64,000 nt of DNA from Micromonospora wenchangensis (GTDB lineage: Bacteria; Actinomycetota; Actinomycetes; Mycobacteriales; Micromonosporaceae): assembly GCF_002210435.1 (NCBI RefSeq), contig NZ_MZMV01000004.1, positions 62,001-126,000 of the forward strand. The letters are read 5' to 3'. The translations under genes and the position numbers were made by a program. Shown one piece after another: positions 13,656 through 53,702 of the stretch; position 1 is the first letter of the stretch, and each line of letters begins with the position of its first letter. The notes beneath the pieces were generated by a model. It searched no databases and was not told the origin of the DNA. It saw only the letters and a list, made by a program, of their open reading frames with translations.

Positions 13656-13683
13656 GCCGCGTACCCGCCCGTCGAGGTGGGCT

Positions 13684-13718: not shown

Positions 13719-13749
13719 TTGAAAACCCCGGGATTACCTGCCAACCTGA

Positions 13750-15243
<1,494 letters not shown>

Positions 15244-23679: not shown

Positions 23680-23732
23680 GTACGACACTCCCATCGGTTG
23701 ACGCCCGAGCTGCCGTCGAATCTACTGAGTCG

Positions 23733-32148: not shown

Positions 32149-32218
32149 GGCCACCGAATCCACTCTGCCCGGGTCTGCACGCCTGTGGGAGCCGGCGGGC
32201 TCGCAGCGCGTACTTCGA

Positions 32219-35099: not shown

Positions 35100-38000
35100 T
35101 CAGCCGGGCCGACCGGCGGCCATCGTGGCGGCCAGACCGGCGACCGTGGGATCGGAGAACAGCGTCCGGATCGGTAGGTCGATGCCGTAGTCGGCGCGGA
35201 TCCGGGCCATCAACCGGGCCGCCGTCAGCGAGTGCCCGCCGAGGGCGAAGAAGTTGTCCCGCACGCCGACCGGTGCCGGTAGCAGCAGCAACTCTGCCAT
35301 GATCGCGGCCAGTCGGGCCTCGACCGGTGTGCGCGGGGCGACCCGCTCCCTGCTCGACGACGCGTTCCAGTCGGGCTCGGGCAGGTTGCGGTGGTCGACC
35401 TTGCCGCTGCGCGTGAGCGGCAACGTGGGCAGCACCACGTACGCGGCCGGAACCATGTAGTCGGGAAGCGTCCGCCGCAGGTGTTCGCCGAGCCCGGCGG
35501 GCGGCTGGTCGGCACCGTTCGCGGTGACGACGTAGCCGACGAGGCGCACGTCGTCACCACCGCCACGCACCGACACCACGGCCTCGGCGACGTCAGGGTG
35601 GCTTCGTAGGGCCGCCTCGACCTCGCCGCTCTCGATCCGGTACCCGCGGATCTTGATCTGCCGGTCGACCCGGCCCGCCAGCTCGATCCGGCCGGTCCGG
35701 CGCCACCGGCCGACATCACCGGTCCGGTACAGGCGGGCGCCCGGTCGCGGGTCGAACGGGTCGGGCAGGAAGCGGGCCGCGGTCATCCCGGGCGAACCGT
35801 GATAGCCGAGGGCCACCCCGGCTCCGCCGATGCAGACCTCCCCGAAGACGCCGGGCGGGACCGGCCGCTGCCGGGCGTCGAGCACGTACAGCCGGGTCCC
35901 GGCGATGATCGAGCCGATCTCGATCGGGGCCGGCGATCCGGCGACGGCCGCACCGCCGGAGTAGACCGTTGTCTCGGTCGGGCCGTACAGGTTCCACACG
36001 CGCGTTCCTGGGCCCGCCCCCAGCACGTCGGCGAGGTCCCGGGGCAGCGGCTCCCCGGCGGTCATCCGCAGCGACACGGTGTCCGGAACGCCACCGGCGT
36101 CGACGAGCATCCGCCAGCCGGTCGGCGTGGCCTGCATGGCGGTCGCGCCGCTGTCGATCAGCAGTTCGCGCAGTCGGGCCGGGTCCTTGACCTGATCGGT
36201 GTCGGCGACCACGACGCGTCCGCCGGCCAGTACCGGCGCGATCAGCTCGACCAGGGCGATGTCGAACGCGAACGTCGACACGGCGACGAACCGCTCCCAC
36301 GGGCCGAGGGCCAGCTTCGGCCCGACCGCGTCGAGCAGCGCCGCGATACCGCCCTGGGTCACGGTGACCGCCTTGGGCCGGCCGGTCGACCCCGAGGTGA
36401 AGATGGTCACGGCCGGGGCAGACGGCGGCCCGTCGAGTACCGGCTCGGGTCGTTCGGGGCCGGCAGGGAGCGCGGCCAGGTCGACGACCGGTATCGGCAC
36501 CGCCGTCGGCGGGAGGGTCGGCGCGCCCGGTACGCCGCTGTCGACCACGATCGCAGCCGCTTCGGCGTCGGCCAGCATCATGGCGATGCGCTGTTCCGGA
36601 TAGATCGCGTCCAGCGGTATGTAGGCCGCGCCTATCGACCAGACGCCGAGGATCGTGGGCAGAAGCCGGGCACCTCGGGGCAGCAGGATCGCCACCCGGT
36701 CGGACGCGCCGACGCCACGGTCGGCCAAGGCGGCGGCGGTCCGCCGGGCCTGGTCGCGCACCTGAGTGCCGGTCAGCTCGCCGTCGCTGCCGGCGACGAC
36801 GACCGAGTGACCGTCACATGCCGCGTGCAGTCTGGCCACCGCCGTCGCGTCCGGGTCGAGGTGTGGGCCGGCGTCCGGCCAGCGGTCGGTGACCAGGGTC
36901 GACAGATCGGAAGACATGATCTCCGCGTCGGCGACGCCCCGGTCCGGGTGGTCGGCGAGACAACGCAGGACCGCTTGGAAGCCGTCGGTCACGAGGCGGC
37001 CGGTCGCGTCGTGGAAGAGGTCGCGGTGGTAGTTGACCCGCACCTGGGGGCCGTCCGCCGCCTCGGTGACGGTCAGCTCGATCTCGAACTTCGTCGTGCC
37101 GTTCTCCACCAGCTCGGGTCGCCAGTGGAGCCCGCCGCGGTCGGGGACGGCCCAGGACTCCTCCATCGCGAACATCACCTGGGTCAGCGTGAACCGGGCC
37201 GGATCGCGGTCGGGGCGCAGCAGCTCCACCATCCGCTCGAACGGCAGCTCCTGATGGGCCAGCGCCCGTACGGTCGCGCGGTGGACGGATCGCACCAGGT
37301 CGCCGAGCGTGGCGTCCCGGTCGATCCGGACCCGGATCGGCACAGTGTTCATCAGCAGGCCGACCATGGTCTCGGTCTCCGGCCGGGTCCGGGCGGCCAT
37401 CGGTACCGCGATCACCAGGTCGTCACTGTCGGTCAGGCGGGACAACACGACCGCGTAGGCGGCCAGCAGGACGGCGAACATCGTGGTGCCCTGGCGGGCC
37501 GCGAGCTGCCGGAGCGCCTCGGCCAGGCCGTTGTCCAGCGTGGTGTGGTTGGACCGGCCGGCGAAGGTCTGGCGGGCCGGGTACGGCTCGTCGTTCGGCA
37601 ACGACAGCGCCGACGGCGCGTCGGCCAGCTCGCTCTGCCAGAACCGGCTGGCCGGCGCGTACCCGCCGTCCTCGGCGTGCCCGAGCTGCCAGATGGCGTA
37701 GTCGGCGTACTGGATCGCCGGCTCCGCGACGGTCGGGGCGCTGTCGCGGACGATCGCCTCGTAGTCGGTGGACAGCTCGTCGAAGAGGACGCGGAACGAC
37801 CAGCCGTCGGCCACGATGTGGTGGGCCACGATCGCGAGGACATGGGCTTCCGGCGACATCCGGACCAGGGTGGCGACGGCGAGCGGCCCGGTCGCCACAT
37901 CGAAGGTGACGCCGGCCATGTCGCGGATCAGCGCCCGGGCGGCAGGTACCCGTTCGCCGTCGGGCCGGTCCTCGACCGAGGTGATCAGCAGCGGTCGCGG

Positions 38001-38237
38001 ATCCGGCTCGTCGTCGATGATCTGCACGGGCACGCCGGCCTCGTGGCGAAACGTGGTGCGCAGGGATTCGTGCCGGGCCAGGGCCGCGTCCCAGGCTCCC
38101 TGCAGCGCGTCGACGTCGAGCGGTCCGTCCAGCCAGACCGCCCAGGAGATGTTGTACGTGGGCAGGTCGGGGTCCATCTCGACCAGCAGCCACATCCGCC
38201 GCTGGGCGAACGACGTCGGGAGCTCGTACACGGTCAC
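35100..38237 (-). CDS. Nonribosomal peptide synthetase module, C-A-PCP
   Basis: The 1045-aa protein has a condensation domain (about residues 5-430, active site HHIVADGW near 138), an adenylation domain (about 460-940, with FTSGSTGRPKAV, NLYGPTETTVY and YRTGDVGRW) and a carrier domain (about 955-1040, phosphopantetheine Ser in NFFALGGHSLTAARL). No thioesterase, reductase or epimerase follows. My reading of the specificity pocket is D-I-V-Q-M-A-L-V-Y, which has some likeness to glycine codes (D-I-L-Q-L-G-L-I-W) but is not a clear match. The GTG at 38237 lies 3 bp after the stop of the larger NRPS, so the two are co-translated. It likely acts as the downstream module of that protein. Confidence 0.9.
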   Translation of the reverse strand: MTVYELPTSFAQRRMWLLVEMDPDLPTYNISWAVWLDGPLDVDALQGAWDAALARHESLRTTFRHEAGVPVQIIDDEPDPRPLLITSVEDRPDGERVPAARALIRDMAGVTFDVATGPLAVATLVRMSPEAHVLAIVAHHIVADGWSFRVLFDELSTDYEAIVRDSAPTVAEPAIQYADYAIWQLGHAEDGGYAPASRFWQSELADAPSALSLPNDEPYPARQTFAGRSNHTTLDNGLAEALRQLAARQGTTMFAVLLAAYAVVLSRLTDSDDLVIAVPMAARTRPETETMVGLLMNTVPIRVRIDRDATLGDLVRSVHRATVRALAHQELPFERMVELLRPDRDPARFTLTQVMFAMEESWAVPDRGGLHWRPELVENGTTKFEIELTVTEAADGPQVRVNYHRDLFHDATGRLVTDGFQAVLRCLADHPDRGVADAEIMSSDLSTLVTDRWPDAGPHLDPDATAVARLHAACDGHSVVVAGSDGELTGTQVRDQARRTAAALADRGVGASDRVAILLPRGARLLPTILGVWSIGAAYIPLDAIYPEQRIAMMLADAEAAAIVVDSGVPGAPTLPPTAVPIPVVDLAALPAGPERPEPVLDGPPSAPAVTIFTSGSTGRPKAVTVTQGGIAALLDAVGPKLALGPWERFVAVSTFAFDIALVELIAPVLAGGRVVVADTDQVKDPARLRELLIDSGATAMQATPTGWRMLVDAGGVPDTVSLRMTAGEPLPRDLADVLGAGPGTRVWNLYGPTETTVYSGGAAVAGSPAPIEIGSIIAGTRLYVLDARQRPVPPGVFGEVCIGGAGVALGYHGSPGMTAARFLPDPFDPRPGARLYRTGDVGRWRRTGRIELAGRVDRQIKIRGYRIESGEVEAALRSHPDVAEAVVSVRGGGDDVRLVGYVVTANGADQPPAGLGEHLRRTLPDYMVPAAYVVLPTLPLTRSGKVDHRNLPEPDWNASSSRERVAPRTPVEARLAAIMAELLLLPAPVGVRDNFFALGGHSLTAARLMARIRADYGIDLPIRTLFSDPTVAGLAATMAAGRPG

Positions 38238-38240
38238 GCC

Positions 38241-41200
38241 TCAGCCCTCCTCACTCTGGTCAGCCGTCTTCTGATCCACTGCGACCAGGCGCAGTTCGCT
38301 GGTGTAACGCTGGCCGTCGGCATCGACCAGCCAGGCCTGATCCGGTTCCGGCAGCATCTCGACGACGGTCACCGTCGCCTCGGCCCCGGCGCGGTGGCGA
38401 CAGCGTCGGACCGACCGGGAGATCAGGTCGATCGACACCGGGCTGGTCAGGTCCGCGTAGATCGGCTTGCGCTCGCCGGTGAACCGGAGGAACACGTGTC
38501 GGGGCAGTCCGTGGCCGGTCGCCCAGCCCCGGGCTTGCAGGTACCGGATGCTCTCGTCGGCCGTTCCGGCGAACGCGAGGTCGGCAGCGGCGAACGTCCA
38601 CCGCTCCCGGCCGACCACGAGATCGTCGATGGTGACACGGGGCGTGTGGGCGGCGGGCGGTACCGGGTCGAAACTGTTGACGATCACGCTCATGATCAGG
38701 TCACCGAGGACCGGGAGCAGGTCGCGTTCGAAGGTGCCGTCGCGGTGTCGGACCCGCAGCCCGGTCGGCGAGTCGACCACGTCGCAGTCACCCACGGCCA
38801 GGGTCGTGGCCGGGTCGTAACCGTTGGCGTCGTGTGACCAGACGAGCCACCGGTCGCCCGGAGACACCAGCACACCGGCCTGCCGGGTGGCGCTGCCGCC
38901 GATCTCGGCCGTCTCGGCCTGCCAGACGACCGGTCCGGCGAGGTCGTGCCGCATGGCCGCGTGGTAGCCGTCCGGGTCGTCGTGCAGCTCCAGCCACGTG
39001 CCGTAGCGGGCGGTGACCCTGCTGGGGTGGACCTCGCCCAGCACCCAGGTGAACCGCCCGCCGGCGGCGGCGTCCGCTCCGGCGATCATCAGGTCCGGGC
39101 TGTGGAACACGGCCGTCGGCCACGGCCGCGGTGGGGCCGGGAACCGGTTGGCGGCCCGTCGCCGCAGGTCGGTCGAGCGTAGCTGGACCCGCCGGGAGCC
39201 CTCGGGCAGATCGAGGATCGCCGACCAGTGCTCCTGCAGCGCCGTGACCGCCGGCTGGATGAGGGTCGGTGCCCGGTGGAACAGGGCGTCGTTGACGAGC
39301 AGCCAGAAATCGGCGAACGGCACGACGTCGGTGCCGAGCTCGGTGGCCCGCTTCCGGTGGGCCGCCTCGAAGTGGCCGGTGTACGCCTCGGCACAGGCGC
39401 CGAGGAACCATCGGGCACTGTCGAGCACCAGCGCCAGCGCCTCGCGGATCCCGTCCAGGGTGTCGGCACCGAGCCGCACGGTGTCGGCGCGTCGGCACTC
39501 CTCGTAGGCGACCGTACGGCCGGCGTACAGTTCGCCGGCCCGTCGGGTGGGTGGGACGCCGGCCAGGCGGGTGAACGTCGCCTCCAGGCCGGCCATGGCC
39601 GCAGCCAACCTGTCCGGGTCGCCGGCCGCGCCGGCCAGCTCGTCCCGGGCGGCGGTCAGCTCGTCGAGCGCCCGGGTGGCCGCCGCTCGGACGTCGTCGT
39701 CGGTGACCCGGGCCAGCAGCGCCCGCATGGTCCGCTCCGGATGGATGTCGGGCGGGGATATCTCGACCTGCCAGGCCAGCCGACGCTGGTCGGCCAGCCG
39801 GGCCAGCACAGCGAGAACGTCGTCGACGTCACGTAGCCCGGCCGACTCGTCAGCGAGTGCCAGGGCAGCGACCGCGCCGGCGTCACGCCCACCGTCGACG
39901 GCCCGCAGGACCGCCGCCTCGGCCGGGGTCAGCGGCACCGGCGGTGCCAGCGGCACGCGGAGCCGGGTGTCGTCGAGACCGACGAACGGCATCCGCCGCG
40001 GTACGAGCCAGGGACGGAGGGCGGTGGTGTGGTCGGCCAGGATCGCGGCCACCGCCCAGCCCTCCAGGTAGGTGATGCGATCGGCCAGGAACCGCCCCGC
40101 CGGGTCGTACCTGATCCGGATGCCGGTGCCGTCGTCGATCTGTGACCAGTTCACCGGGCCGAAGAAGCCGATGGTGTCGTTCTTCGCGCAGTACCGCTGC
40201 AGGTAGCTCGCGATGAGCGCCTCGTGCTGGCGGGCCTTGGTGTCCCGCCTGGCCGGCTCCGGCCCGCGCCGGACGACCGGATCGAGGCCGGTCGTCAGCG
40301 CGTGCCGGTTCTGCCAGGCGACGGCTTCTCGCAGCGCCGGCCGGCTGGCCGCCTCGTGCAGGGTCGCGGACTGGCGTCGCACCGCCGCGGCGAACTCGGC
40401 GGAGTAGGCGGCCATGGCCGGCTCGCCCGCGGCCACGACGGCGTCGGCCGCCTCGGCCAGGTCGGCGGCACCGAGGCTGGCCAGTAGGTGGACCGGAAAG
40501 CCGGCCCCCCGCAGGCAGACCGTCCGCCACAGTGCCCAGTCGCCGCCCAGGTGGACCAGGTGCGGCGCGGTCTTCCGGCCCGGCGGCGGGCCGGGGGCGG
40601 GGGCGCGGAAGGCCCGGCGGTCCTGGCGGCCGATGGCGGCCGGGCGTACCGGACCGGGTGCGGCCCGGTCGCGGGCGGCGTCGATCGCGGCGGCACAGTC
40701 GACGAGCGTGGGCTTCTCGTAGAAGGTGGCCATGCGCAGCTCGACGTCGAACACCTCGCGGATCCGGAACATCAGGCGCGACGCCAGGAGCGAGTTGCCG
40801 CCGAGGGCGAAGAAGCTGTCCTCGCGACCGATGTCGCCGTCGTACGGGCCCCGGGCGGGCAGCAGCCGCCGCCAGGTGTCGGCCAACCGCTCCTCGGTGC
40901 CGCCCCGCGGCGGGGTGACCGGCCCGCGGGTCTGGGCCTCCGGCGCGGGCAACGCGGCCCGGTCGATCTTGCCGTTGGCGTTGAGCGGGAACCGGTCGAG
41001 GGCTCTGAACCCGGTGGGTACCAGGTACTCCGGCAGACGATCGACCAGGAAGTCACGCAACGAGGCCGGCCGAAGGGTGCCCGGGTCGACACCGTCGGCC
41101 GGTGTCACGTACGCGATCAGGTGCCGCTGCGCCCCCTGACCGGCCACCAGGACGACCGCGTCGCCCACGTCCGGATGCGTGCGCAGGACCGACGTGACCT

Positions 41201-44200
41201 CACCGGGCTCGACCCGGAAGCCACGGATCTTGATCTGGTCGTCGGCGCGGCCGACGAACTCGAGTGTCCCGTCGGCGCGCCAGCGGGCCAGGTCCCCGGT
41301 CCGGTACAGACGCGTGCCGTACCCGCAGGGATCGGGCACGAAGGCCCGTGCGGTGGCCGAGGCGTTGCCGACATAACCGCGGGCGAGGCCCTCCCCACCG
41401 GTGAACAGCTCGCCGGCCACACCGACCGGCACCGGCTGACCGCTCTCGTCGAACAGGTGCACGGTGGTGCCCTGGATCGGGCGGCCGATGGGCACCGTCG
41501 ACGCCACCTGGTCCGGGTCGTGCATGACGTGGCACGTGGTGAACGTGGTGTTCTCGGTCGGGCCGTAACCGTTGACCAGCGGCCGGCGGCCGCGGGCCGA
41601 CAGCACGGCGCGCACCGTGGTGGGGCTGAGCGCGTCGCCGCCGGCCAGGAGGACGGGGACACCGGCGACGGCCTCGAGATCCGCCTCGGCAAGCTGGTGG
41701 AACAGGCCGGCGGTGAGCCACGCGACCGTCACGTCGGCGGTGCGCAGCAGGGCGGCGATCTCCGGCAGCCCGAGCGGACCGGGCGGCGCGATCACCGCCG
41801 TCGCGCCGGTCAGCAGCGCACCCCACAGTTCCCACGTGGACGCGTCGAACGCGACCGGGGCGAGGTGCAGGAGGCGCTGGCCCGGGCCGAGCGGGGCGAA
41901 CGACGGGTCGTGGACGAGCCGTGCCACCCCGCGGTGTGGCACGGCGACACCCTTCGGTACCCCGGTCGAGCCCGAGGTGAAGCTGATGTAGGCCAGGCTG
42001 TCCGGGTGGGACAGGTCCGGCGGCGCCGTGCGCTCGGCGGCGGCGCCGGTGGGCTCGGCGTCGACGTACACCGTGTCCACCCCGGGTAATGCGGCCCGGT
42101 CGGTGGCCCGGGTGGCCAGCCGGAGCCGGACGCCCGCGGCGGCGATCATGGCCGCCGCCCTGGGCGCCGGGCTGTCCGCGTCGATCGGCAGGTACGCGCC
42201 GCCGGCCTTCGACACGGCCAACAGGGCCACCACGAGGTCGACGCCGCGCTCTACCGTCACCGCGACCGGCACGTCGGCGACTACCCCGTGGCGGCGCAGC
42301 CGCCAGGCCAGGGCGTTGCTGCGCCGGTCCAGCTCCGCATAGGTCATGGATCCGGCGCCGAAGACCAGCGCCGTCGCGTCCGGCCGGACCGCGACCTGGG
42401 CCGCGAACAGTGCGGGGATCGTGCCACCCGATTCGGTGTCGGGCAGCCCGGGCCCACGGTTCCAGGGCTGGAGCCGCCGTGACTCGTCGTCGGACATGAG
42501 CCGCAGCCCGTCGATCGGGGTGTCCGGTCGGGCCAGGGCGTCGGCGAGCAGGTTCAGGTAGTGCTCGACCAGCCGGGACATGGTCGACGCATCGAACAGA
42601 TCGGTCGAGTACTCCCAGATCAGGTGCAGGTCGTCGTCCTCGGGCCGGGACTCCCGGCCCGCCCGCTGCGCCCCCCGCGGCACCACGATGACGTTGAGGT
42701 CGGCCTTGGCCGAGCCGTTTGCCCGCTCGGTGACCGCACCGGTGAGCCCACCGAAGTCGAGGTCGGGCACGGCCGAGTCGTGGAAGCTGAACATGACCTG
42801 GAACAGCGGGAGCCGCGCGGAGTCGCGTTCCGGCCCGATCGCGTCGATCACGGTGTCCAGCGGGGTGTCCGACCAGGCCAGCGCGTCGAGCACGGTTTCC
42901 TGGACCTGGTCGAGCAGGTCGGTGAACGACATTCGGCCGTGCGGCCGGGTCCGCAGGACGACCGTGTTGACGATCATGCCGAGCAGCGGCTGGAGCTCGG
43001 GCAGGCTCCGGTTGGCCATGCCGGTGCCGACCAGCAGGTCCTGCTGCCCGGTGTACCGGTGCAGCAGGGCGGCGAAGGCGGTGTACATGGTCGAGAACAG
43101 CGACACCCGGCGCCGCCGGCTGAACGCGCGCAGTGCGCGGGCCAACTCGGTCGGGACGGTGATCCGCGGTGCCGCACCACGCAGGCTCATGACCGGTGGC
43201 CGTGGGCGGTCGGCCGGCAGCTCCAGCCGGTCGGACGCGCCGGCGAGCCGGGCGGTCCAGTGGTTGACGTGGGCCTTGAGCACGTCGCCGTCCATCCACT
43301 CCCGCTGCCAGATCGCGTAGTCCGCGTACTGGATGGTCAGCTCCGGCAGGGGCGACGGCTGACCGGCGGCGAACGCCGGATACAGGGCCGACAGTTCGGA
43401 CAGGAACACCGCGAGCGACCAGCCGTCGTGGACGAAGTGGTGTTCGACGTGGACCAGCGTGTTCTCGCCGTCCCCGTGGCGCAGGAGGAGCCAGCGGGCC
43501 AGCGGCGCGCTGGTCAGGTCGAACGGCTGGGCCAGCTCGACGGCGAGCACGTCGTCGGCCTGTTCGCGCGGTACGTCCAGGACGCGCAGGGGGGCGCACA
43601 CGCCGGCGACCGGCTGCTGCACCGGGACGCCGTCGACGCTGACGAAGGCGGTCCGCAGCATCTCGTGCCGGCGCACGATCTCGTCGAGCGCGGCGCGGAG
43701 CGCGCCGGTGTCGACGTCGCCGTGCAGCGACACCGTGGCCTGGAAGTTGTAGGCGATGTTGTCCGGGGCCAGTTGCGCGAAGAACCACACCCGTCGCTGC
43801 TGGAACGACAGGGGAATCGGCTGGTCGCGGTCGGCCCGGGTGATCGACGGCGGGGTCGGTGGGACCGGGGAGTTCAGGTCCGGGTCGGTGGCCACCTCGG
43901 ATCGGCCGGTCCGCCCGTCGACCAGGTCGGCGAACGCGGCGATCGTCCGGGCGCGGGCCAGCTCGGCCAGGCTGAGCTTCGCGTCGAGTTCGACGCCGAT
44001 CCGGGTCGCGAGCCGGCCGACCAGCAGCGAGGTGCCGCCGAGGGCGAAGAAGTCGTCGTCGGCGCCGACCGCCACGCCACCGAGCAGGTCGGACACGATC
44101 CGGGCCACCGCGCCCTGGGTCGGCGTGCGCAGCGGTGCGGTCACCGCGGTCAGGCCGGCGGCCACCCGGTCGGGCGCGGGCAACGCAGTCCGGTCCACCT

Positions 44201-45611
44201 TGTCGTTGGGCGTCATCGGCAGCGCGGGCAGTACGACGACGGCCGCAGGCACCATGTACTCGGGCAGCCGGGCCCCCACGAAGGCGATCAGCTCGGCCGG
44301 CGTGGCGTCCGCGGCGACGTAGGCGTGCAGCACCGGGTCCGCGCACCCGGTGCGCTGGGCGGCCACGTAGGACTCCCGAACGGCCGGGTGCTGCCGCAGG
44401 ACGGCCGCGATCTCGCCGGGCTCGATCCGGAATCCGCGGATCTTGACTTGGTCGTCGAGCCGGCCGAGGTACTCGTAGGTCCCGTCGGGCCGGCGGCGGA
44501 CCAGGTCACCGGTGCGGTACATGCGCTGACCCGGGACCGCTACGTCGGGCACGAACGACCGCGCGGTGGCAACCGGATCGTTCAGGTAGCCCCGGGCTAC
44601 GCACGCACCGGCCAGGCACATCTCGCCGGGACTACCGTCAGGCACCACGTCGGAGCCGTCGAGCACGTAGCAGCGCACGCCGTCGAGGGGCACGCCGATG
44701 GGCGGCGGCACCGGCCCGCCCGACGGCACCGTGGCGGTCGTCGCGGCCACCGTGCACTCGGCCGGCCCGTACACGTTGACCAGGGTGAACGGCAGACCGG
44801 GCGGCAGGCTGCGCTGCAGCGCGGAACCGCCGGTGTGCAGCCACCGCAGCGCGGTGTGCGCCGGCCACGGCACGTCGAGCACCGCCTCGGCCAGCGGCGT
44901 GGGCAGGAAGGTCGCGGTGATCCGCTCGTCGGCCAGCCAGCCGACCAGGTCCGGTGGGGAGGCGCGCACGGCCGCCGGTGGCACCACCAGCGTGCCACCG
45001 GCCGCCAACGTGGGCCAGGTGTCCCACACCGAGACGTCGAATCCGGGGGCGCACAGCAGCGTCGTGCGGTCCCCCGGGCCCAGGCCGAAGGCGCTCTCGT
45101 GCCAGCGCATGAGGTTCGCGAGGCTGCCGTGACGTACCGCGGCCGCCTTGGGCCGACCCGTCGATCCCGACGTGAAGATGACGTAGGCCAGCGCGTCGTC
45201 GTCCGGTCGTGGGACCGGCTCGTAGCGTGCGGCGGGCGTCTGCGCCAGGTCGACGACCTCGGGGTCGCCGAGCTGCACGCCGGCCGACAGGCGCGACGGG
45301 CTGGTGATCACGGCGGCGGCCCCGGACAGGCCCAGCAGCTCCGTGGTCCGGGCGGCCGGATGGGCCGGATCGAGCGGTACGTACGCCGCGCCGGCCAGCA
45401 GCACCGCCAGCTCGGCGACGACGATCTCGGCCGACCGGTCGATGTGAACGGCGACCACGTCACCCGGTCGGACCCCACGCCGGGCGAGCCGGGCCGCCAG
45501 GCCGCAGGCGTGTCCGGCCAACTCCAGGTAGGTGAGCAGCCGGTCGCCATCCTGTACGGCGATCGCATCAGGCGCCTGGGTCACGCGGGAATGGAATTGA
45601 TCGAGGATCAT
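38241..45611 (-). CDS. NRPS A-PCP-C-A-PCP fused to a LanB-type (lantibiotic dehydratase N-terminal/PEARL-like) domain
   Basis: The 2456-aa protein begins with adenylation domain 1 (about residues 10-490, IFTSGSTGRPKAA near 150; pocket read as D-V-W-F-H-G-V-V-A) and carrier 1 (Ser in FFALGGTSL, about 522). Condensation follows (HHFVHDGW about 724), then adenylation 2 (about 1060-1560) with pocket D-A-W-W-L-G-G-T-F, very close to known valine codes, and carrier 2 (FFALGGNSL, about 1604). The last 800 residues match LanB glutamylation domains, with RHALTTGLDPVV (about 1775) and YCAKNDTIGFFGPVNW (about 1814). Such domains use aminoacyl-tRNA. No separate elimination (SpaB_C) domain is visible, as in PEARL amino-acid ligases. 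It starts at ATG 45611, or the adjacent GTG at 45614, behind AGAGGAA. Confidence 0.85.
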   Translation of the reverse strand: MILDQFHSRVTQAPDAIAVQDGDRLLTYLELAGHACGLAARLARRGVRPGDVVAVHIDRSAEIVVAELAVLLAGAAYVPLDPAHPAARTTELLGLSGAAAVITSPSRLSAGVQLGDPEVVDLAQTPAARYEPVPRPDDDALAYVIFTSGSTGRPKAAAVRHGSLANLMRWHESAFGLGPGDRTTLLCAPGFDVSVWDTWPTLAAGGTLVVPPAAVRASPPDLVGWLADERITATFLPTPLAEAVLDVPWPAHTALRWLHTGGSALQRSLPPGLPFTLVNVYGPAECTVAATTATVPSGGPVPPPIGVPLDGVRCYVLDGSDVVPDGSPGEMCLAGACVARGYLNDPVATARSFVPDVAVPGQRMYRTGDLVRRRPDGTYEYLGRLDDQVKIRGFRIEPGEIAAVLRQHPAVRESYVAAQRTGCADPVLHAYVAADATPAELIAFVGARLPEYMVPAAVVVLPALPMTPNDKVDRTALPAPDRVAAGLTAVTAPLRTPTQGAVARIVSDLLGGVAVGADDDFFALGGTSLLVGRLATRIGVELDAKLSLAELARARTIAAFADLVDGRTGRSEVATDPDLNSPVPPTPPSITRADRDQPIPLSFQQRRVWFFAQLAPDNIAYNFQATVSLHGDVDTGALRAALDEIVRRHEMLRTAFVSVDGVPVQQPVAGVCAPLRVLDVPREQADDVLAVELAQPFDLTSAPLARWLLLRHGDGENTLVHVEHHFVHDGWSLAVFLSELSALYPAFAAGQPSPLPELTIQYADYAIWQREWMDGDVLKAHVNHWTARLAGASDRLELPADRPRPPVMSLRGAAPRITVPTELARALRAFSRRRRVSLFSTMYTAFAALLHRYTGQQDLLVGTGMANRSLPELQPLLGMIVNTVVLRTRPHGRMSFTDLLDQVQETVLDALAWSDTPLDTVIDAIGPERDSARLPLFQVMFSFHDSAVPDLDFGGLTGAVTERANGSAKADLNVIVVPRGAQRAGRESRPEDDDLHLIWEYSTDLFDASTMSRLVEHYLNLLADALARPDTPIDGLRLMSDDESRRLQPWNRGPGLPDTESGGTIPALFAAQVAVRPDATALVFGAGSMTYAELDRRSNALAWRLRRHGVVADVPVAVTVERGVDLVVALLAVSKAGGAYLPIDADSPAPRAAAMIAAAGVRLRLATRATDRAALPGVDTVYVDAEPTGAAAERTAPPDLSHPDSLAYISFTSGSTGVPKGVAVPHRGVARLVHDPSFAPLGPGQRLLHLAPVAFDASTWELWGALLTGATAVIAPPGPLGLPEIAALLRTADVTVAWLTAGLFHQLAEADLEAVAGVPVLLAGGDALSPTTVRAVLSARGRRPLVNGYGPTENTTFTTCHVMHDPDQVASTVPIGRPIQGTTVHLFDESGQPVPVGVAGELFTGGEGLARGYVGNASATARAFVPDPCGYGTRLYRTGDLARWRADGTLEFVGRADDQIKIRGFRVEPGEVTSVLRTHPDVGDAVVLVAGQGAQRHLIAYVTPADGVDPGTLRPASLRDFLVDRLPEYLVPTGFRALDRFPLNANGKIDRAALPAPEAQTRGPVTPPRGGTEERLADTWRRLLPARGPYDGDIGREDSFFALGGNSLLASRLMFRIREVFDVELRMATFYEKPTLVDCAAAIDAARDRAAPGPVRPAAIGRQDRRAFRAPAPGPPPGRKTAPHLVHLGGDWALWRTVCLRGAGFPVHLLASLGAADLAEAADAVVAAGEPAMAAYSAEFAAAVRRQSATLHEAASRPALREAVAWQNRHALTTGLDPVVRRGPEPARRDTKARQHEALIASYLQRYCAKNDTIGFFGPVNWSQIDDGTGIRIRYDPAGRFLADRITYLEGWAVAAILADHTTALRPWLVPRRMPFVGLDDTRLRVPLAPPVPLTPAEAAVLRAVDGGRDAGAVAALALADESAGLRDVDDVLAVLARLADQRRLAWQVEISPPDIHPERTMRALLARVTDDDVRAAATRALDELTAARDELAGAAGDPDRLAAAMAGLEATFTRLAGVPPTRRAGELYAGRTVAYEECRRADTVRLGADTLDGIREALALVLDSARWFLGACAEAYTGHFEAAHRKRATELGTDVVPFADFWLLVNDALFHRAPTLIQPAVTALQEHWSAILDLPEGSRRVQLRSTDLRRRAANRFPAPPRPWPTAVFHSPDLMIAGADAAAGGRFTWVLGEVHPSRVTARYGTWLELHDDPDGYHAAMRHDLAGPVVWQAETAEIGGSATRQAGVLVSPGDRWLVWSHDANGYDPATTLAVGDCDVVDSPTGLRVRHRDGTFERDLLPVLGDLIMSVIVNSFDPVPPAAHTPRVTIDDLVVGRERWTFAAADLAFAGTADESIRYLQARGWATGHGLPRHVFLRFTGERKPIYADLTSPVSIDLISRSVRRCRHRAGAEATVTVVEMLPEPDQAWLVDADGQRYTSELRLVAVDQKTADQSEEG

Positions 45612-45659
45612 CACGCACGCTTCCTCTGGTGGTGGCGGCTTGACTCGTGGCCTCGCGGG

Positions 45660-45854
45660 TCAGGTGCCCGACGCCATGGCGCGGCGCAGGCTCAGCGGAC
45701 GCATGTCGGTCCAGATCTCCTCGATGTGGGCCAGGCAGTCGGCCTCGGGGCCACGGAAGCCCTCACCCCGCCACCCGGCCGGCAGGTCACGGTTGGCGTC
45801 CCAGATCGAGTACTGCTCCTCGTCGTTGACGACCACGAGGTAGGTGCGGTCCAT
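45660..45854 (-). CDS. MbtH-family NRPS accessory protein
   Basis: This 64-aa protein shows the family signature: [20 protein letters not shown], then PAGWRGEGF and the terminal [11 protein letters not shown]. MbtH proteins bind adenylation domains and are needed for their folding or activity. It lies directly upstream of the large NRPS in the same operon and 2 bp after the kinase gene stop, so it probably serves the NRPS proteins of this cluster. Confidence 0.95.
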
Positions 45855-45856: not shown

Positions 45857-46717
45857 TCAGTTCCCCTTTCGCGCGGACCGGTCGGCCGTTGACTGGGCAC
45901 CGGCCATGGTCACCGTCGTCCCGGCCCCGGCCAGAGCGCGGCTGATTGGTTCGGGCACCCGTCCGTCGGCGATCCGCACCGAGGTCACCCCGCCGGCCAG
46001 GGCCTCACGGGCGGCGACGAGTTTGAGCGCCATGCCGCCGGCGACGGATCCGGGCGCGCCCGCCGGGGGCACCGCGTAGGTGCTGTGCATGCTGGTCTCG
46101 TCCCCGGCGTCGGCGAGCACACCCGGCGCGCCGGTCAGCAGCACCAGCCGGTCGGCGCCGAGCGCCACCGTGAGCGCCGCCGCCACCCGGTCGGCGTTGA
46201 CGTTCACCGGCTGGTCGTGCTCGTTGATCGCGGGCGGCGACACCACCGGTACGAAACCGGACCGCAGCAGCCCCTCCAGCAGGTCGGTACGAACGGCGGC
46301 GATCTGTCCGCCGTGGTTGTCACGCACCAGCACGGTCCGGCCGTCGACCATCGCCCGGACGGCCGGTTTGCGGCGGGCCCGCAGCATGCCGCCGTCGAGT
46401 CCGGTGAGGCCGACGGCGGGCGCCCCGAGGCCGGACAGCGCGGCGACGATCGCCGGTTTGACCGCCCCGGCCAGCGCGAGCACGACGACCTCCAGCATCG
46501 CCGGATCGGTGTACCGGGCCGACACGCCGTCCGGGGCGACCAGGGTGCGCTGCGGCACCCCCAGCTTCCCGGCCAGCCGGGCGATCTCGCCGGAGCCGCC
46601 GTGCACCAGGACGACGGACTCGCCCCGGTGGACGAGCCGGGCGACGTCGGCGCAGATGCCCCGGGAGTCCACAGCCGGGTTTCCGCCGCACTTCACGACC
46701 GTCAGCAGTCTGGTCAC
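45857..46717 (-). CDS. lysZ: LysW-dependent amino-acid kinase (LysZ/ArgB-like)
   Basis: The 286-aa protein is an amino-acid kinase of the N-acetylglutamate kinase group: [11 protein letters not shown] at the N-terminus, [10 protein letters not shown] near 40, and the ATP site [12 protein letters not shown] near 195 with [10 protein letters not shown] near 230. In the carrier-protein pathway LysZ phosphorylates the side-chain carboxylate of glutamate or aminoadipate attached to LysW. The presence of LysW, LysX, LysY and LysK in the same cluster supports this over ordinary arginine synthesis. The GTG at 46717 lies 7 bp after the LysY stop. Confidence 0.85.
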
Positions 46718-46724: not shown

Positions 46725-47744
46725 CTAGACGGGGTGCAGGCCGGGAAAGGACAGGCCGAGGTTCTCCGGCCAGCCCATGCGGATGTTCAGGCACTGGACC
46801 GCGTTGCCGGCGCCCCCCTTCATGAGGTTGTCCAGCGCCGCGATGGTGGTCAGCCGGCCGGTGTCCTCGTCGAATGCGAACCCGACGTCGCAGAAGTTCG
46901 AGCCCGACAGGATCTTCGGCTCCGGGTACCGGTACCGGCCGCGGTGCTGCGCGACCAGCCGGACGAACGGCTCGTCGCGGTACCGCTCGCGGAACGCCCG
47001 GCGTACCGCCTTCTCGTCGACGCCGGGTTTCGGGGTGACGTGGCAGACCGTCTGCACGCCCCGCACCGCCTCGACCCCGGTCGCGGTCATGGTGACCCGT
47101 ACGCCGACGTGCCGGGCGATCTCCGCTTCGTGCCGGTGTCCGGTGGGCGCGAACACCCGCATCGCCCCGCTGCGGAACGCGTGCAGGTTGTCCTCGCCGG
47201 CGGTGGCCCCGGAGCCGCTGGATCCGGTGCGCGCGTCCAGGTGGGCTTCCGGTCCGATCAGGTCTCGGATCGGGTGGAGCGAGAGCGTGCCGGCCACGGC
47301 CATGCAGCCGGGCACGCTGACCAGGTCGGCACCGCGTAGGCGCTCCCGGTGCAGCTCCGGAATCCCCGGAACGAATTCGCCGAGCAGGTGCGGCGCGACG
47401 TGCGAGGAGCGGTAGTAGCGCTGGAAGACCTCGGTGTCCTCCAGCCGGAAGTCGCCGGTGAGGTCGATGACCTGCTTGCTGTGTCCGGTCCAGCGCTCGA
47501 TCTGGGCCATCGCGGCGCCGTGCGGGGTGGCCAGGAAGACGGTGTCGTACTCGTCCACGTCGTCCGCCGGACAGAACGTCAGGTCGGTGGCGGATCGCAG
47601 GTTCGGGTGGACACCGTCGACCCGTTTGCCGGCGAACCGGGAGGAGACTGCGGCCGTCACCTCGACCTCGGGGTGGCCGACGAGTAGTCGCAGCAGTTCC
47701 CCGCCGATAAACCCGGCCGCGCCGACAACAGCGACGCGGATCAC
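46725..47744 (-). CDS. lysY: LysW-dependent acyl-phosphate reductase (LysY/ArgC-like)
   Basis: This 339-aa NADPH-dependent reductase has the Rossmann motif VAVVGAAGFIGGELLRLL at the N-terminus, the catalytic Cys in SVPGCMAVAGTLSL (about 152) and GSSGSGA. It reduces the LysW-bound acyl phosphate made by LysZ to a semialdehyde. GTG at 47744 overlaps the TGA of lysW, so carrier and reductase are translationally coupled. In this cluster the aldehyde is the expected acceptor for the split transketolase downstream. Confidence 0.85.
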   Translation of the reverse strand: MIRVAVVGAAGFIGGELLRLLVGHPEVEVTAAVSSRFAGKRVDGVHPNLRSATDLTFCPADDVDEYDTVFLATPHGAAMAQIERWTGHSKQVIDLTGDFRLEDTEVFQRYYRSSHVAPHLLGEFVPGIPELHRERLRGADLVSVPGCMAVAGTLSLHPIRDLIGPEAHLDARTGSSGSGATAGEDNLHAFRSGAMRVFAPTGHRHEAEIARHVGVRVTMTATGVEAVRGVQTVCHVTPKPGVDEKAVRRAFRERYRDEPFVRLVAQHRGRYRYPEPKILSGSNFCDVGFAFDEDTGRLTTIAALDNLMKGGAGNAVQCLNIRMGWPENLGLSFPGLHPV

Positions 47745-47905
47745 TCGCCCCAGTCCTCTTCGATCTCGGGGGCGAGCGCGAGCACCGTCGGGCTCAGGGC
47801 GACGATCTCCAGTTCGTTCCGGCAGCCGGCACACTCGACGATCTCGTTGAGCCGTGCCGAATCGCTGATCGACACCTCGTCCGTGCATTGTGGACAGTCC
47901 GACAT
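47741..47905 (-). CDS. lysW: LysW-type amino-group carrier protein (54 aa)
   Basis: The reverse strand carries a 54-codon gene from ATG 47905 to TGA 47741-47743. Two zinc-binding CxxC pairs are present, CPQC at residues 4-7 and CAGC at 25-28. The C-terminus is acidic and ends in the diagnostic EEDWGE, whose last Glu is the attachment point for the substrate amino group. LysW carriers protect the alpha-amine as an isopeptide while LysZ, LysY and later enzymes act. A ribosome binding-like GAAAGGACG precedes it by about 14 bases. It overlaps the lysY start by 4 bp. Its small size makes it easy to miss, yet it defines the pathway. Confidence 0.9.
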   Translation of the reverse strand: MSDCPQCTDEVSISDSARLNEIVECAGCRNELEIVALSPTVLALAPEIEEDWGE

Positions 47906-47930: not shown

Positions 47931-48878
47931 CTAGTGGGTCCCGAAGCGAGCTGTCGCGTCGAGTGCGGTGCGGACCATGGTCACGATCCGTTCCGCCGTG
48001 ATGTCGTAGTACGTGAGTAGGTACTCCTGGTTGCCGACCGCGTCGGCGAACTGGTCCGGCATCCCCAGCCGCAGGACCTTCGTCGGCGCTGCCTCGGCCA
48101 GGGCCTCGGTCACTGCGCCGCCGAGGCCGCCGCCGCACCAGTGCTCCTCGACCGTCACCACGAGCGCGGCCGCCCGTGCCGCGTCGATCAGCGCCTCGGT
48201 GTCGAGGGGGCGCACCGTGTGCAGGTTCAGCACGGCGGTTTCGATGCCGTGCCCGGCGAGGGTGTCCGCCGCGGCGAGGCAGGCCAGTGTCGGGTAGGGG
48301 CCGCAGCAGGCGAGGACCACGTCGCCGCCCGGTCGCAGCGTCTGCGCGCGGCCGATGACCGGGGCCGGGGCCGGCGGCAGCGGCGGGGACGGTTTGCGGT
48401 CGAGCCGGACGTAGAGCGGTCCGGGCAGGCTCAGGCTCTGCGCGACGAACGCCTCCGTGGCCGTCGCGTCGACCGGCACCACCACGGTCATCCCGGGGAG
48501 CACCCGCAGCACGGCGAGGTCCTCCAGGGCCTGGTGCGTCGGGCCGAGGTGGCCTGCGGCGAGGCCGCCGTGGGTGGCCATGATCCGGACCGGCAGCCGG
48601 TTGTACGCGATGTCGATCTTGATGGCTTCCAGCGCACGCGAGGTGGCGAACGCGGCCATCGTGTTCACGAACGGTGTGCGCCCGCACGCGGCCATCCCGG
48701 CGGCGATCCCCATCAGGTTGTGCTCGGCGATGCCGAGGTTGAGGTACTGGTCCCCGGCCGCCGAGACGTGCTCCGGGCGGAACAGGCCGGTATCGGTGTC
48801 CAGGCAGATCACCTCCGGGTGCCGGTCCAGCAGGGAGAGCAGGCAGTCCCGGTACGCCTCCCGGACGGCGCGGCTCAT
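47931..48878 (-). CDS. Transketolase C-terminal subunit
   Basis: This 315-aa protein matches the pyrimidine-binding and C-terminal domains of transketolase: the catalytic Glu in LGIAEHNLMGIAAGMAACG (about 50), THGGLAAGHLGPTHQ near 105, and VEEHWCGGGLGGAV near 240. Together with the next gene it makes a two-chain thiamine-diphosphate enzyme. In vazabitide-type pathways a split transketolase adds a two-carbon ketol unit to the LysW-bound semialdehyde, giving the seven-carbon diol skeleton. The start ATG at 48878 overlaps the N-subunit stop. Confidence 0.85.
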   Translation of the reverse strand: MSRAVREAYRDCLLSLLDRHPEVICLDTDTGLFRPEHVSAAGDQYLNLGIAEHNLMGIAAGMAACGRTPFVNTMAAFATSRALEAIKIDIAYNRLPVRIMATHGGLAAGHLGPTHQALEDLAVLRVLPGMTVVVPVDATATEAFVAQSLSLPGPLYVRLDRKPSPPLPPAPAPVIGRAQTLRPGGDVVLACCGPYPTLACLAAADTLAGHGIETAVLNLHTVRPLDTEALIDAARAAALVVTVEEHWCGGGLGGAVTEALAEAAPTKVLRLGMPDQFADAVGNQEYLLTYYDITAERIVTMVRTALDATARFGTH

Positions 48879-49705
48879 CGGGCGGCATCCGTGGCTGCCA
48901 ACGCGGCGAGCGCCCGGGCATGGTTGCGCGGCGACAGCGTCACGTAGTGGCTGTCGGTCCGGCCGGCGAGGAACGAGAGCCCGTGCCCCTTGACCGTGCG
49001 GGCGATCAGCACGCTCGGCCGGCCCGGCTCCCACGGTGCGGCAGCGAGGTGGTCGGCCAGTCGGATCGCGTCGTGGCCGTCCACCTCGCGTACCGCCCAG
49101 CCGAAGCTGCGCCAGCGTTCGGCAAGCGGTTCCATCGGCGCGATCCGCTCGGCCGGACCCGTCAGTTGCAGCCCGTTGCGGTCCACGACGGCGACCAGCC
49201 GGTCCAGCCGCAGCGATGCGGCTGCGATGGCCGCCTCCCAGACCGAACCCTCCTGGAGTTCGCCGTCGCCGAGGAGCACGAAGCTGCGCGAGTCGCGGCC
49301 GGCGTACCGGTTGGCCAGCGCGAACCCACAGGACAGCGCGAGCCCGTGGCCGAGTGATCCGGTGGGCAGCTCGACGCCGGGCACCGCGCGTACCGGGTGG
49401 CCCATCAACCGGCTGCCCGGCCGACCGTATCCGGCAAGCTCCCCGACCGGAAAGAAGCCCCGCTCGGCGAGCGTCGCGTACAGGGCCAGGGCGGCGTGAC
49501 CCTTGCTGAGCAGGAAGCGGTCGCGGTCCGGGTGGCCCGGCTGCCGCGGGTCCACCCTGAGCACCGAGAAGTACAGTGCGCTGAGCACCTCGACGCAGGA
49601 CAACGCGCCGCCGAGGTGGCCGCCTTCCGGCCCAGCGCACATGTCGACGACGTGCGTGCGGATGCGGGCCGCGACCGCCTCCAGCGTGTCCTCGGCCGTC
49701 GTCAT
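48875..49705 (-). CDS. Transketolase N-terminal subunit
   Basis: This 276-aa protein carries the thiamine diphosphate/Mg site [20 protein letters not shown] (about 145) and substrate-site histidines in [16 protein letters not shown] (about 30), [12 protein letters not shown] and TGSLGHGL. Length fits a stand-alone N-subunit of about 270 residues. ATG 49705 overlaps the aminotransferase stop, and its stop overlaps the C-subunit start, giving equal synthesis. It is not next to pentose-phosphate genes, which supports a specialised role on the carrier-bound aldehyde. Confidence 0.85.
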
Positions 49706-50994
49706 GACGCCGCCGCCGCGAGCGTCGCCACCGTATCGCGATTCGCCCAGACCTTCTCGAACGCGTCCGCGTAGAGGCCCAGCAGTTCGCCCGATCCTGG
49801 ATTGAGGTGACGCTTCTGGAGGGTGAGGGAGTCGGCGACGATCGCGCGGGCCACCGGGTGGTCCGCGTCCGGGGCCGCGTCGCCGGTCACGGTCCACGGA
49901 TAGCCGGCGCCGAAGCCGACGCGGTCGACGAACACCTTCTGGTCGGGCAGCGGCATGAGCTGGTACTGCGACATCGGCACGCCTTCGGCGCGCAACAGCC
50001 GCCGCAGCACCGAGCGCAGCGCCGCCGGCCGTACGTCGTCGGAGAGGCCGAACCCGGCCCGCTCGAACCGGAACCGCAGGATGTGCCAGACGTGTGTGGT
50101 GCCCGGGAGCGCGGTCGGTACGCGCAGGCCGGGAAGTGCCGCGAGCCGCGCGAGGAATTCGGTGACGTTGCATTGCCGCTGGCGTTCGTACTCGTCGAAC
50201 CGAGCGAGCTGCGCGGTGGTGAAGGCGGCCTGGATCGCGTTCATCTTGTGATTCCAGCCCACGCCGTGGGACACGTAGTCACGGTCGCGGCCACTCTCGA
50301 TCACCTCGCCGAACTGCCGGGCCCGGCGGACCGCCTCGGCCAGCTCGGCGCGGCCGGTTACGAGCAGCCCGCCTTCGCCGCAGGTCGGAATGTTCTTCGT
50401 GACCTGCAGGCTGAACGCGCCCGCGTCGCCGATCCCGCCGACCGGCCGGCCCCGGTGGGTCGCGCCGGGGGCCTGGGCCGCGTCCTCGACCACCGCGAGG
50501 CCGTGCCGGTGCGCGATGTCGAGGATCCGGTCCATGTCGGCGGGCGCGCCGTGCAGGTGCACCGGGATGATCGCCGCTGTTCTCGGCGTGATCCGACGTG
50601 CGACGTCGTCCGGGTCGAGGTTGAACGTGACCGGGTCGACGTCGGCGAACACGGGAACGGCCATCTGGTGTACCGGCGCGAGACCGGTGGCGATGAAGCT
50701 GAGCGCGGGCACGATCACCTCGTCACCCGGTCCGATCCCGAGCCCGGCCAGCGCCAGGGACAGCGCGGCCGTACCGGTGGACACCCCGACGCAGTGGTCG
50801 AAGCCGAACCGCCGTGCCCAGTTCGCCTCAAGGATGGCGACCGGGTTCACGCCCTCGGTGTTGGACACCAGCCGGCCCCCGTCGAGTGTGTCGAGGACGG
50901 CCTTGCGGTCCTCGTCCTCGATCAGCGGCCAGTCCACGCCGCGCCGGTCCTTCGGCACGACGACCGGGCCGCCGAACGCTGCCAGCTTGCTCAT
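49702..50994 (-). CDS. DegT/DnrJ/EryC1-family PLP aminotransferase
   Basis: This 430-aa fold-type I enzyme has the sugar-aminotransferase pattern: [49 protein letters not shown] and the PLP lysine in [15 protein letters not shown] (about 198). In the LysW route it would aminate the ketone created by the transketolase to give the second amine of diaminodihydroxyheptanoate. ATG 50994 follows GGGGGAGA. It is co-transcribed with the transketolase genes by a 4-bp overlap. Confidence 0.85.
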
Positions 50995-53500: not shown

Positions 53501-53702
53501 GTGATTCCTTCCGCTGTGACGCATTGAACGCCGCCCATTGTCGTACGGGCCGGACGGGACCGGGTAAGCGAAATGCGCAACCCGCGGTCGGGGATATCAA
53601 TGCAGTGCGTCGCACCGGATGAACCTCGCGCGGACGCGTTCGTGGTCGGGCCGCCCGTAGCGTCACCAGGCAGCCGAATTGTGCCGTCCTATTACGGAGG
53701 TC
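53501..53702. promoter_or_regulatory. Divergent promoter region between the two halves of the cluster
   Basis: About 200 bp separate sulfotransferase (reverse) and lysX (forward). The AT-rich word GGGATATCAATGC near 53593-53605 and CCTATTACGG near 53688 are the likeliest promoter elements. No regulator gene of the cluster is in the window, so its operator could not be identified. Confidence 0.4.

What the first reader, a model, noticed from the sequence alone, without database searches (positions are those of the whole stretch)
38241..40700. NRPS with a C-terminal LanB-type, tRNA-dependent domain
After the second carrier domain the same protein continues for about 800 residues with LanB glutamylation-domain motifs (YCAKNDTIGFFGPVNW). 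No LanA precursor, LanC cyclase or SpaB_C elimination domain is nearby. Small LanBs without elimination domains include PEARLs, which add an amino acid from aminoacyl-tRNA to a peptide C-terminus. A covalent fusion suggests a hybrid line in which a carrier-bound peptide is extended or dehydrated using aminoacyl-tRNA. I know of no characterised example of this fusion.
Basis: partly seen in the sequence, partly recalled or inferred. Interest (0 to 1): 0.92.

Follow-up and report, generated by a model that had tools for sequence, protein, structure and literature searches.

The report
NRPS fused to tRNA-dependent amide ligase
A Micromonospora enzyme that builds peptides without ribosomes carries at its end a domain that very likely takes an extra amino acid from a transfer RNA and adds it to the "wrong" end of the growing chain, joining in one protein two machines known so far as separate proteins.

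Summary
One 2457-aa ORF (38241-45614, minus) reads A-T-C-A-T followed by a ~760-aa LanB-glutamylation-like domain. It is no artefact: two other genomes carry it at 88-91% identity amid the same genes. The domain is not a dehydratase: it keeps five ATP-site residues of peptide aminoacyl-tRNA ligases (PEARLs), present in 55 of 55 aligned sequences, each absent from 20 of 20 LanBs. The C domain has the ureido signature EHHFVHDG. The protein therefore looks like a covalent version of SnaA (A-T-Curea-A-T) plus SnaE (PEARL-like), characterised in 2024 as separate proteins. Most likely Curea reverses the chain and leaves amino acid 1 with a free carboxylate; the chain stays on T2, and the adjoining PEARL adds one amino acid from tRNA to that carboxylate. 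In a tree of 126 such domains the 34 fused ones fall in one clade; most have another C domain in place of A-T-Curea, so the window version looks like a domain swap. The cluster also encodes a LysW-dependent amino-acid pathway resembling azinomycin/vazabitide aziridine biosynthesis. The substrate carboxylate and the tRNA amino acid are not shown. A new variant of a known kind.

The parts
38241..45614 (-). NRPS-PEARL gene, 2457 aa: A1-T1-Curea-A2-T2-PEARL
44175..45614 (-). A1 domain; code DVWFHGVVA, no match among codes I recall
   Evidence: Pfam; code (positions recalled)
43890..44117 (-). T1 carrier, active-site motif LGGTSL
42465..43820 (-). Curea condensation domain, EHHFVHDG at 43422-43445
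40950..42419 (-). A2 domain, Val-like code DAWWLGGTF
   Evidence: specificity recalled
40671..40892 (-). T2 carrier (LGGNSL), directly before the PEARL domain
   Evidence: carrier-protein fold in the didomain model
40566..40664 (-). T2-PEARL linker; residues 1655-1676 have pLDDT under 50
38280..40565 (-). PEARL (LanB glutamylation-like) domain; ATP-site residues D2174, E2194, H2196, R2336, K2383, E2440, R2442; tRNA residues Y1804, R1807, R2033
39762..40007 (-). RRE-like winged-helix part of the PEARL domain
   Evidence: PqqD match E 0.0068; TbiB1 RRE Z 7.7 over 77 residues, weak
35100..38237 (-). next NRPS: C (AHHIVADG, ordinary)-A (DIVQMALVY)-T
45660..45854 (-). MbtH-like protein
45857..46717 (-). 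LysZ/ArgB-like acyl kinase
   Evidence: over NCBIfam cut-off
46725..47744 (-). ArgC/LysY-like acyl-phosphate reductase (start approximate)
47741..47905 (-). LysW-like amino-group carrier protein, C-terminus EDWGE
   Evidence: below that model's cut-off; PF21344 E 2.6e-12
47931..48860 (-). transketolase, pyrimidine-binding and C-terminal half (start approximate)
48875..49714 (-). transketolase, N-terminal half (start approximate)
49702..50994 (-). DegT-type aminotransferase
51015..52037 (-). BtrH_N-like protein (start approximate)
52766..53524 (-). sulfotransferase
53679..54584 (+). LysX/RimK-like ATP-grasp ligase
54584..55699 (+). M20 family peptidase/deacylase
55731..59009 (+). third NRPS: C-A (DVFDFGGVT)-T
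59016..61619 (+). thioesterase-acyl-CoA dehydrogenase fusion

Best explanation
The protein is a ureido-forming NRPS with its own PEARL. A1 and A2 load two amino acids on T1 and T2 (A2 probably Val). The Curea domain joins their amino groups through a carbonyl, so amino acid 1 leaves T1 with a free carboxylate while the chain stays on T2 as a thioester. The PEARL domain, tethered next to T2, activates that carboxylate with ATP, lets the amino group of an aminoacyl-tRNA attack it, and so adds one amino acid opposite to the NRPS direction; the tRNA is then lost. The following C-A-T proteins extend the normal end. Shown by computation: domain order, Curea signature and clade, LanB fold, PEARL ATP and tRNA residues. 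Inferred: all reactions, the exact carboxylate and the amino acid.
For: Five PEARL ATP-site residues (BhaB7 D558, E575, H577, R715, R815; roles from PMC12945691 and PMC11962472) are present in 55 of 55 aligned sequences, window included, and each is absent from 20 of 20 LanBs of the same bacterial family; the tRNA Arg (R208) is present in 55 of 55 and 20 of 20. LanB fold, with weak extra similarity to ATP-grasp synthetases (glutathione synthetase 1m0w Z 5.2). EHHFVHDG is the Curea signature of PMC11212132; 8 rows with it form one clade, 100/100. SnaA and SnaE do this chemistry as separate proteins. An EHHXXHDG C domain lies in 5 of 77 PEARL-seeded loci; in L086 and L147 it is an A-T-Curea-A(-T) protein near a stand-alone PEARL. 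Disordered T2-PEARL linker.
Against: Most NRPS-PEARL fusions that I could read lack Curea and start with another C domain (22 of 28), and the trees put the PEARL fusion before the Curea swap, so the ureido carboxylate cannot be the target in those. Curea NRPSs also occur without a PEARL in the 20 kb taken (5 loci). I could not align BhaB7, TglB or SnaE themselves; residue matching to BhaB7 rests on order and spacing. The 5-of-77 figure has no background rate. No product is known.
Confidence: 0.6

Rival explanations
1. The domain is a PEARL but acts on another carboxylate: the released end product, a side chain, or the C-terminal Glu of the LysW-like carrier, not the ureido carboxylate on T2.
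For: Same catalytic residues as PEARLs; known PEARLs act on carrier peptides, and a LysW carrier is in the cluster. The SnaE paper leaves open whether Thr is added on or off the line. Sister fusions lack Curea.
Against: Relatives of the window's LysW, kinase, reductase and transketolase genes were found near other fusions only in the two orthologues L039 and L040, and in none of the 97 further loci (the 98th, L148, is the window's own DNA; not all 97 hold fusions, and only up to ~22 kb each was seen). LysX should already serve LysW. Direct fusion to T2 favours an on-line substrate.
Confidence: 0.22
2. The PEARL-like domain uses aminoacyl-tRNA to take the chain from the T2 thioester (forward extension or release onto tRNA).
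For: It sits directly after T2.
Against: A thioester needs no ATP, yet the ATP residues are invariant; C-A-T proteins follow that could extend T2.
Confidence: 0.08
3. It is a LanB glutamylation domain that dehydrates a Ser/Thr on the carrier.
For: LanB fold; the tRNA Arg and the Glu equivalent to BhaB7 E813 are shared with LanBs.
Against: No PF14028 on this contig; the genome's two copies are on contig C14. Five PEARL residues absent from 20 of 20 LanBs are kept.
Confidence: 0.04
4. Sequencing or assembly artefact joining two genes, or a dead domain.
For: None found.
Against: Same ORF in two other genomes; catalytic residues invariant; 34 of 126 homologous domains fused, in one clade.
Confidence: 0.01

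Closest known systems
SnaA/SnaE of the threopeptin (sna) cluster, Stackebrandtia nassauensis (PMC11212132, main text read, not its supplement)
   Same: A-T-Curea-A-T NRPS with EHHXXHDG, MbtH protein, thioesterase, acyl-CoA dehydrogenase, PEARL-like enzyme, no RiPP precursor reported
   Different: There SnaE is a separate protein and a KS-AT-T PKS follows; here the PEARL is fused after T2, C-A-T NRPSs follow, and thioesterase and dehydrogenase are fused. Sequences were not compared
PEARLs TglB, AmmB2, BhaB1/BhaB7 (PMC12945691 section 9, PMC11962472 passages)
   Same: LanB glutamylation-type, no elimination domain; ATP and tRNA residues
   Different: They are stand-alone and extend ribosomal carrier peptides
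Class I LanB-type enzymes NisB, MibB, TbtB
   Same: Fold over about 640 residues; in LanBs of the same family also the tRNA-binding Arg
   Different: LanBs of the same family lack five ATP-site residues and carry an elimination domain; they act on ribosomal precursors
C-A-T-PEARL fusions of Saccharothrix, Salinispora pacifica CNR114, Micromonospora echinofusca and others (this work; no characterisation found)
   Same: A(Val-like)-T-PEARL followed by C-A-T
   Different: N-terminal C domain of HHxxxDGRS type instead of A-T-Curea
Azinomycin/vazabitide aziridine pathway (PMC9570651, passages)
   Same: kinase, reductase, transketolase, aminotransferase, sulfation, amino-group carrier protein
   Different: No PEARL is mentioned in the passages read; those clusters themselves were not compared

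Membership tests
PEARL (peptide aminoacyl-tRNA ligase) | LanB glutamylation-domain homology and fold | tested here: met
   PF04738 E 9.9e-21; TbtB Z 20.6 over 650 residues
PEARL (peptide aminoacyl-tRNA ligase) | ATP-grasp-like ATP-site residues | tested here: met
   5 diagnostic residues in 55 of 55 sequences, 0 of 20 LanBs; matched to BhaB7 by order and spacing, not by aligning BhaB7
PEARL (peptide aminoacyl-tRNA ligase) | tRNA-binding Arg/Tyr | tested here: met
   R1807 in 55 of 55; Y1804 in 53 of 55
PEARL (peptide aminoacyl-tRNA ligase) | no elimination domain | tested here: met
   PF14028 only on contig C14
PEARL (peptide aminoacyl-tRNA ligase) | ATP- and aminoacyl-tRNA-dependent amide formation at a carboxylate | not testable with these tools
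   needs assay
Curea condensation domain | EHHXXHDG active site | tested here: met
   residues 724-731
Curea condensation domain | groups with other EHHXXHDG domains | tested here: met
   8 rows, 100/100; 5 of them had been found with the window's own domain and no characterised Curea was in the tree
Curea condensation domain | forms a ureido bond | not testable with these tools
   needs assay
Class I lanthipeptide dehydratase system | elimination domain with the glutamylation domain | tested here: not met
   none on contig C4
Class I lanthipeptide dehydratase system | LanC cyclase nearby | tested here: not met
   PF05147 only on C14 and C49
sna-type cluster | KS-AT-T PKS after the ureido NRPS | tested here: inconclusive
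   the assembly-line ORFs scanned beside it are C-A-T; not every window ORF was scanned
sna-type cluster | PEARL kin of SnaE | not tested
   SnaE sequence was not at hand
LysW-dependent DADH/aziridine pathway | LysW, LysX, kinase, reductase, transketolase pair, aminotransferase, sulfotransferase | tested here: met
LysW-dependent DADH/aziridine pathway | makes DADH or an aziridine | not testable with these tools
   needs product analysis

The most novel reading that the evidence does not exclude
A single polypeptide is a two-way assembly line: after ureido chain reversal the carrier-bound chain is extended at one end by NRPS modules and at the other end, in cis, by aminoacyl-tRNA. With a LysW carrier supplying one building block, the pathway uses three carrier systems (LysW, phosphopantetheine, tRNA) to make an aziridine-bearing ureidopeptide.
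Probability: 0.45. Interest if true: 0.78.

Novelty: new variant of a known kind. Interest (0 to 1): 0.64.

Why it matters
It would be a covalent link between template-free tRNA-dependent peptide synthesis and NRPS, where a tethered substrate should make the PEARL's target, and its amino-acid choice, easy to read out. The clade of fusions, with swapped front ends, shows how nature plugs a tRNA-dependent module into assembly lines and gives natural test cases for engineering two-way extension. It also helps genome miners re-read 'NRPS plus lantibiotic dehydratase' annotations.

Tried and rejected
Dehydratase reading: rejected for lack of an elimination domain and presence of PEARL residues. LysW as PEARL substrate: considered; the other loci searched lack LysW-pathway genes, so kept only inside a rival. 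In one search one aminotransferase match (L147, 36.7%) and four partial acyl-CoA-dehydrogenase/thioesterase matches (L087, L103, L105, L108; 24-30%) did turn up. Foxicin as the product of the Streptomyces loci with two PEARLs (L117 is S. diastatochromogenes): a term search of PMC5318452 found no 'lantibiotic' in its text; dropped.

Background test for the Curea signature: as a DNA pattern it hit 124 of 300 genomes, with many different middle residues, so the pattern alone is not specific and no co-localisation statistic was made. The figure 5 of 77 loci has no proper background, and my ORF picker favours high-GC genes: it gave no PEARL ORF for 4 of the 77 loci (L080, L105, L118, L144).

A single-sequence profile alignment of the genome's own LanB failed (probability 0.1%); it was replaced by a profile of 20 LanBs (probability 98.5%, E 2.8e-15). 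These 20 were picked by hand from 67 places listed. Of the 20, 18 were later scanned with Pfam and 18 of 18 carry PF14028, one of them only in part (L171; its stretch was cut short); L184 and L186 were not scanned. The 55 rows of the residue table are the window plus 54 of 95 usable homologous domains listed; another set, the 39 (also window included), is likewise invariant at these five residues. protein 5 was out of frame (no family); redone in frame. No solved PEARL structure appeared among the fold matches. phmmer of the single domain against the PDB gave no LanB. The first genome-contig scan found nothing.

Labels and dropped rows: 'fused' means an A or T hit of 20 bits or more in the same ORF; matches spanning under 600 aa and identical sequences were left out; the tree is a quick one and some rows are long-branched. 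In one search the 'Cstar' label was set by motif, and 2 of the 14 rows of that clade are labelled 'C'.

Full report
OBSERVATION. The window is on contig C4 (62001-126000) of a 7.5-Mb genome in 150 contigs. The genus is very probably Micromonospora: contig C111 of a 'same genus' genome (G173; 151,937 bases) has the same length and the same match position as a Micromonospora orduensis contig. ORF 38241-45614 (-) is one open frame of 2457 codons. Pfam reads AMP-binding, PP-binding, Condensation, AMP-binding, PP-binding; with the C-terminal 819 residues cut out, it reads Lant_dehydr_N at E = 9.9e-21. The full-length scan did not list that family.

NOT AN ARTEFACT. Two further genomes (G285, same genus; G001, same family) carry the same ORF, 2457 and 2488 aa, at 90.6% and 87.8% identity. 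The genes around it are also kept: aminotransferase, both transketolase halves, LysW, reductase, kinase, MbtH and the C-A-T protein, and LysX, M20, sulfotransferase, BtrH-like and the other C-A-T protein. The thioesterase-dehydrogenase was seen only in part in G001 and lay outside what I took from G285.

WHAT THE DOMAIN IS. An AlphaFold2 model of residues 1656-2457 made from 55 sequences has mean pLDDT 91.4. Its PDB matches at E <= 0.001 are 11 chains, all of LanB-type enzymes: TbtB, MibB, GodF, MadB and NisB; VIA-align gives TbtB Z 20.6, rmsd 4.0, 650 aligned, and NisB Z 17.9, rmsd 4.7, 635 aligned. Weaker rows include ATP-grasp enzymes (yeast glutathione synthetase Z 5.2, 283 aligned) and RRE domains (TbiB1 Z 7.7, 77 aligned), among unrelated folds; at those Z values a shared fold is only suggested.

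PEARL OR LANB. Published work on BhaB7 and TglB (PMC12945691 section 9; PMC11962472 passages) names residues for ATP (BhaB7 D558, E575, H577, R715, F755, K763, E813, R815), for tRNA (Y205, R208, R429) and R34. The window domain has the same residues in the same order, mostly with near-equal spacing: D2174, E2194, H2196, R2336, F2375, K2383, E2440, R2442; Y1804, R1807, R2033; R1702 (the R34-R208 distance differs, 174 against 105). I made this match by eye, since BhaB7 and TglB sequences were not at hand. Two further tRNA residues named for BhaB7, R197 and Q201, are not kept at the expected places (Q1796 and L1800, both variable). In the 55-row table the equivalents of D558, E575, H577, R715, F755, E813 and R815 are present in 55 of 55, K763 is 47 K and 8 R, and R208 is 55 of 55. 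In 20 LanBs from the same bacterial family, aligned profile to profile, none has the equivalent of D558, E575, H577, R715 or R815, while 20 of 20 keep E813 and R208. Eighteen of the 20 were checked for the elimination domain and 18 have it. Single columns of so remote an alignment can be off, but five losing together is hard to get by misplacement. The same genome has a LanB with elimination domain, and a LanC-like protein, on contig C14. So the domain is a PEARL by residues, not a LanB.

UREIDO CONDENSATION. The single C domain reads EHHFVHDG at residues 724-731. Yu and van der Donk (PMC11212132; [quoted passage not shown] passage). In my C-domain tree 8 EHHXXHDG rows form one clade (100/100), with the window and its two orthologues next to an A-T-Curea-A-T protein of G313 (71% identity in the C domain) that has no PEARL in the 20 kb taken.

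THE FUSION FAMILY. In 300 genomes of the family, 116 have a relative of the domain at E <= 1e-20. A scan of the genome collection confirmed 299 relatives, of which the best 80 gave 77 loci, from Actinomycetota to Acidobacteriota, Chloroflexota and a cyanobacterium. In a tree of 126 domains, 34 lie in an ORF with other NRPS domains, and all 34 fall in one clade of 38 rows (SH-aLRT 99), the other 4 being stand-alone. Of 28 fused ORFs listed (the orthologues) have EHHXXHDG, 22 have an N-terminal C domain with HHxxxDGRS, and 4 show no such motif because the ORF is cut or split. Named hosts of that second type include Saccharothrix species, Salinispora pacifica CNR114 and Micromonospora echinofusca. 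Where a code could be read, the A domain before the PEARL is Val-like (DALWLGGTF, DLLWLGGTF and similar), or DAWFLGAT[ML] in three (the code positions and the meaning of the codes are recalled). The window's PEARL places it with C-A-T-PEARL loci L072, L154 and L155 and the truncated L071, and the C domain of its following C-A-T protein places it with L072, L154 and L155, but its Curea does not. The simplest reading is a domain swap: A-T-Curea replaced the older C domain in front of a kept A-T-PEARL.

MECHANISM. By the SnaA precedent, Curea leaves the chain on T2 and frees the carboxylate of amino acid 1. PEARLs use a carboxylate and ATP, not a thioester. A PEARL tethered to T2 by a linker that the didomain model shows as disordered (residues 1655-1676) could reach that carboxylate directly. 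Further support: 5 of 77 PEARL-seeded loci also hold an EHHXXHDG C domain (L086, L103, L140, L144, L147); in L147 (Saccharothrix sp. ST-888) it is an A-T-Curea-A-T protein near a stand-alone PEARL, and in L086 (Parvularcula) an A-T-Curea-A protein, cut by the locus end, directly follows one. I have no background rate for this. Against it stands the C-A-T-PEARL majority, where no Curea supplies a carboxylate; there the front C domain may attach a diacid, but I have no evidence for that beyond an AMP-ligase gene upstream in L154.

THE CLUSTER. From 35100 to 61619 the genes fit one pathway: LysW carrier (54 aa, ends EDWGE), LysX, kinase, reductase, two transketolase halves, aminotransferase, sulfotransferase, M20 enzyme, BtrH-like protein, MbtH, three NRPS proteins, and a thioesterase-acyl-CoA dehydrogenase. 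A review (PMC9570651, passages) describes the same chemistry for azinomycin, with vazabitide as the carrier-protein precedent: kinase, reductase, two-carbon extension by transketolase, amination to DADH, sulfation, and aziridine closure. I therefore expect a ureidopeptide with a DADH-derived unit, which is inference. The thioesterase and acyl-CoA dehydrogenase recall SnaD and SnaO.

NOVELTY. My searches of the open-access library (listings) showed no description of an A-T-Curea-A-T-PEARL protein or an assayed NRPS-PEARL fusion; most subscription papers are not held, and supplements were not read. Parts and reaction logic are known; the covalent form and its union with a LysW pathway are new to me: a new variant of a known kind.

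Noticed in passing
window 7450-8433 (+) and 9044-11572 (+): An MvdD-type ATP-grasp protein (PF21068 E 1.6e-8) next to a Peptidase_C39 ABC exporter: looks like a graspetide-type RiPP locus, more than 20 kb from the NRPS genes.
   Followed up: no
L036:8913-12077 and 11744-14422 (genome contig C53): Two PEARL-like genes side by side near NRPS genes; similar adjacent pairs recur in many same-genus genomes. Function unknown to me.
   Followed up: partly
L035:4682-7960 (genome contig C118): A second NRPS-PEARL fusion in the same genome (57% identity), cut by the contig end, followed by C-A-T.
   Followed up: partly
L117, L121, L124, L126, L130, L133, L137, L141 and similar Streptomyces loci: Clusters with two stand-alone PEARL-like genes, many with an A-domain protein or a small carrier protein between or beside them.
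   Followed up: no
window 51015-52037 (-): BtrH_N-like protein inside a LysW/NRPS cluster; possibly an acyl transferase from a carrier.
   Followed up: no
window 22491-26597 (+): 1368-aa protein with a C-terminal CHAT domain.
   Followed up: no
window 31408-33805 (-): Nucleotidyltransferase-like and erythromycin-esterase-like genes beside the cluster; possible self-resistance genes, untested.
   Followed up: no
L069 (genome contig C14:89000-108999): Class I lanthipeptide-type genes in the same genome: LanB with elimination domain, LanC-like protein and a second elimination-domain protein. No precursor was looked for.
   Followed up: no
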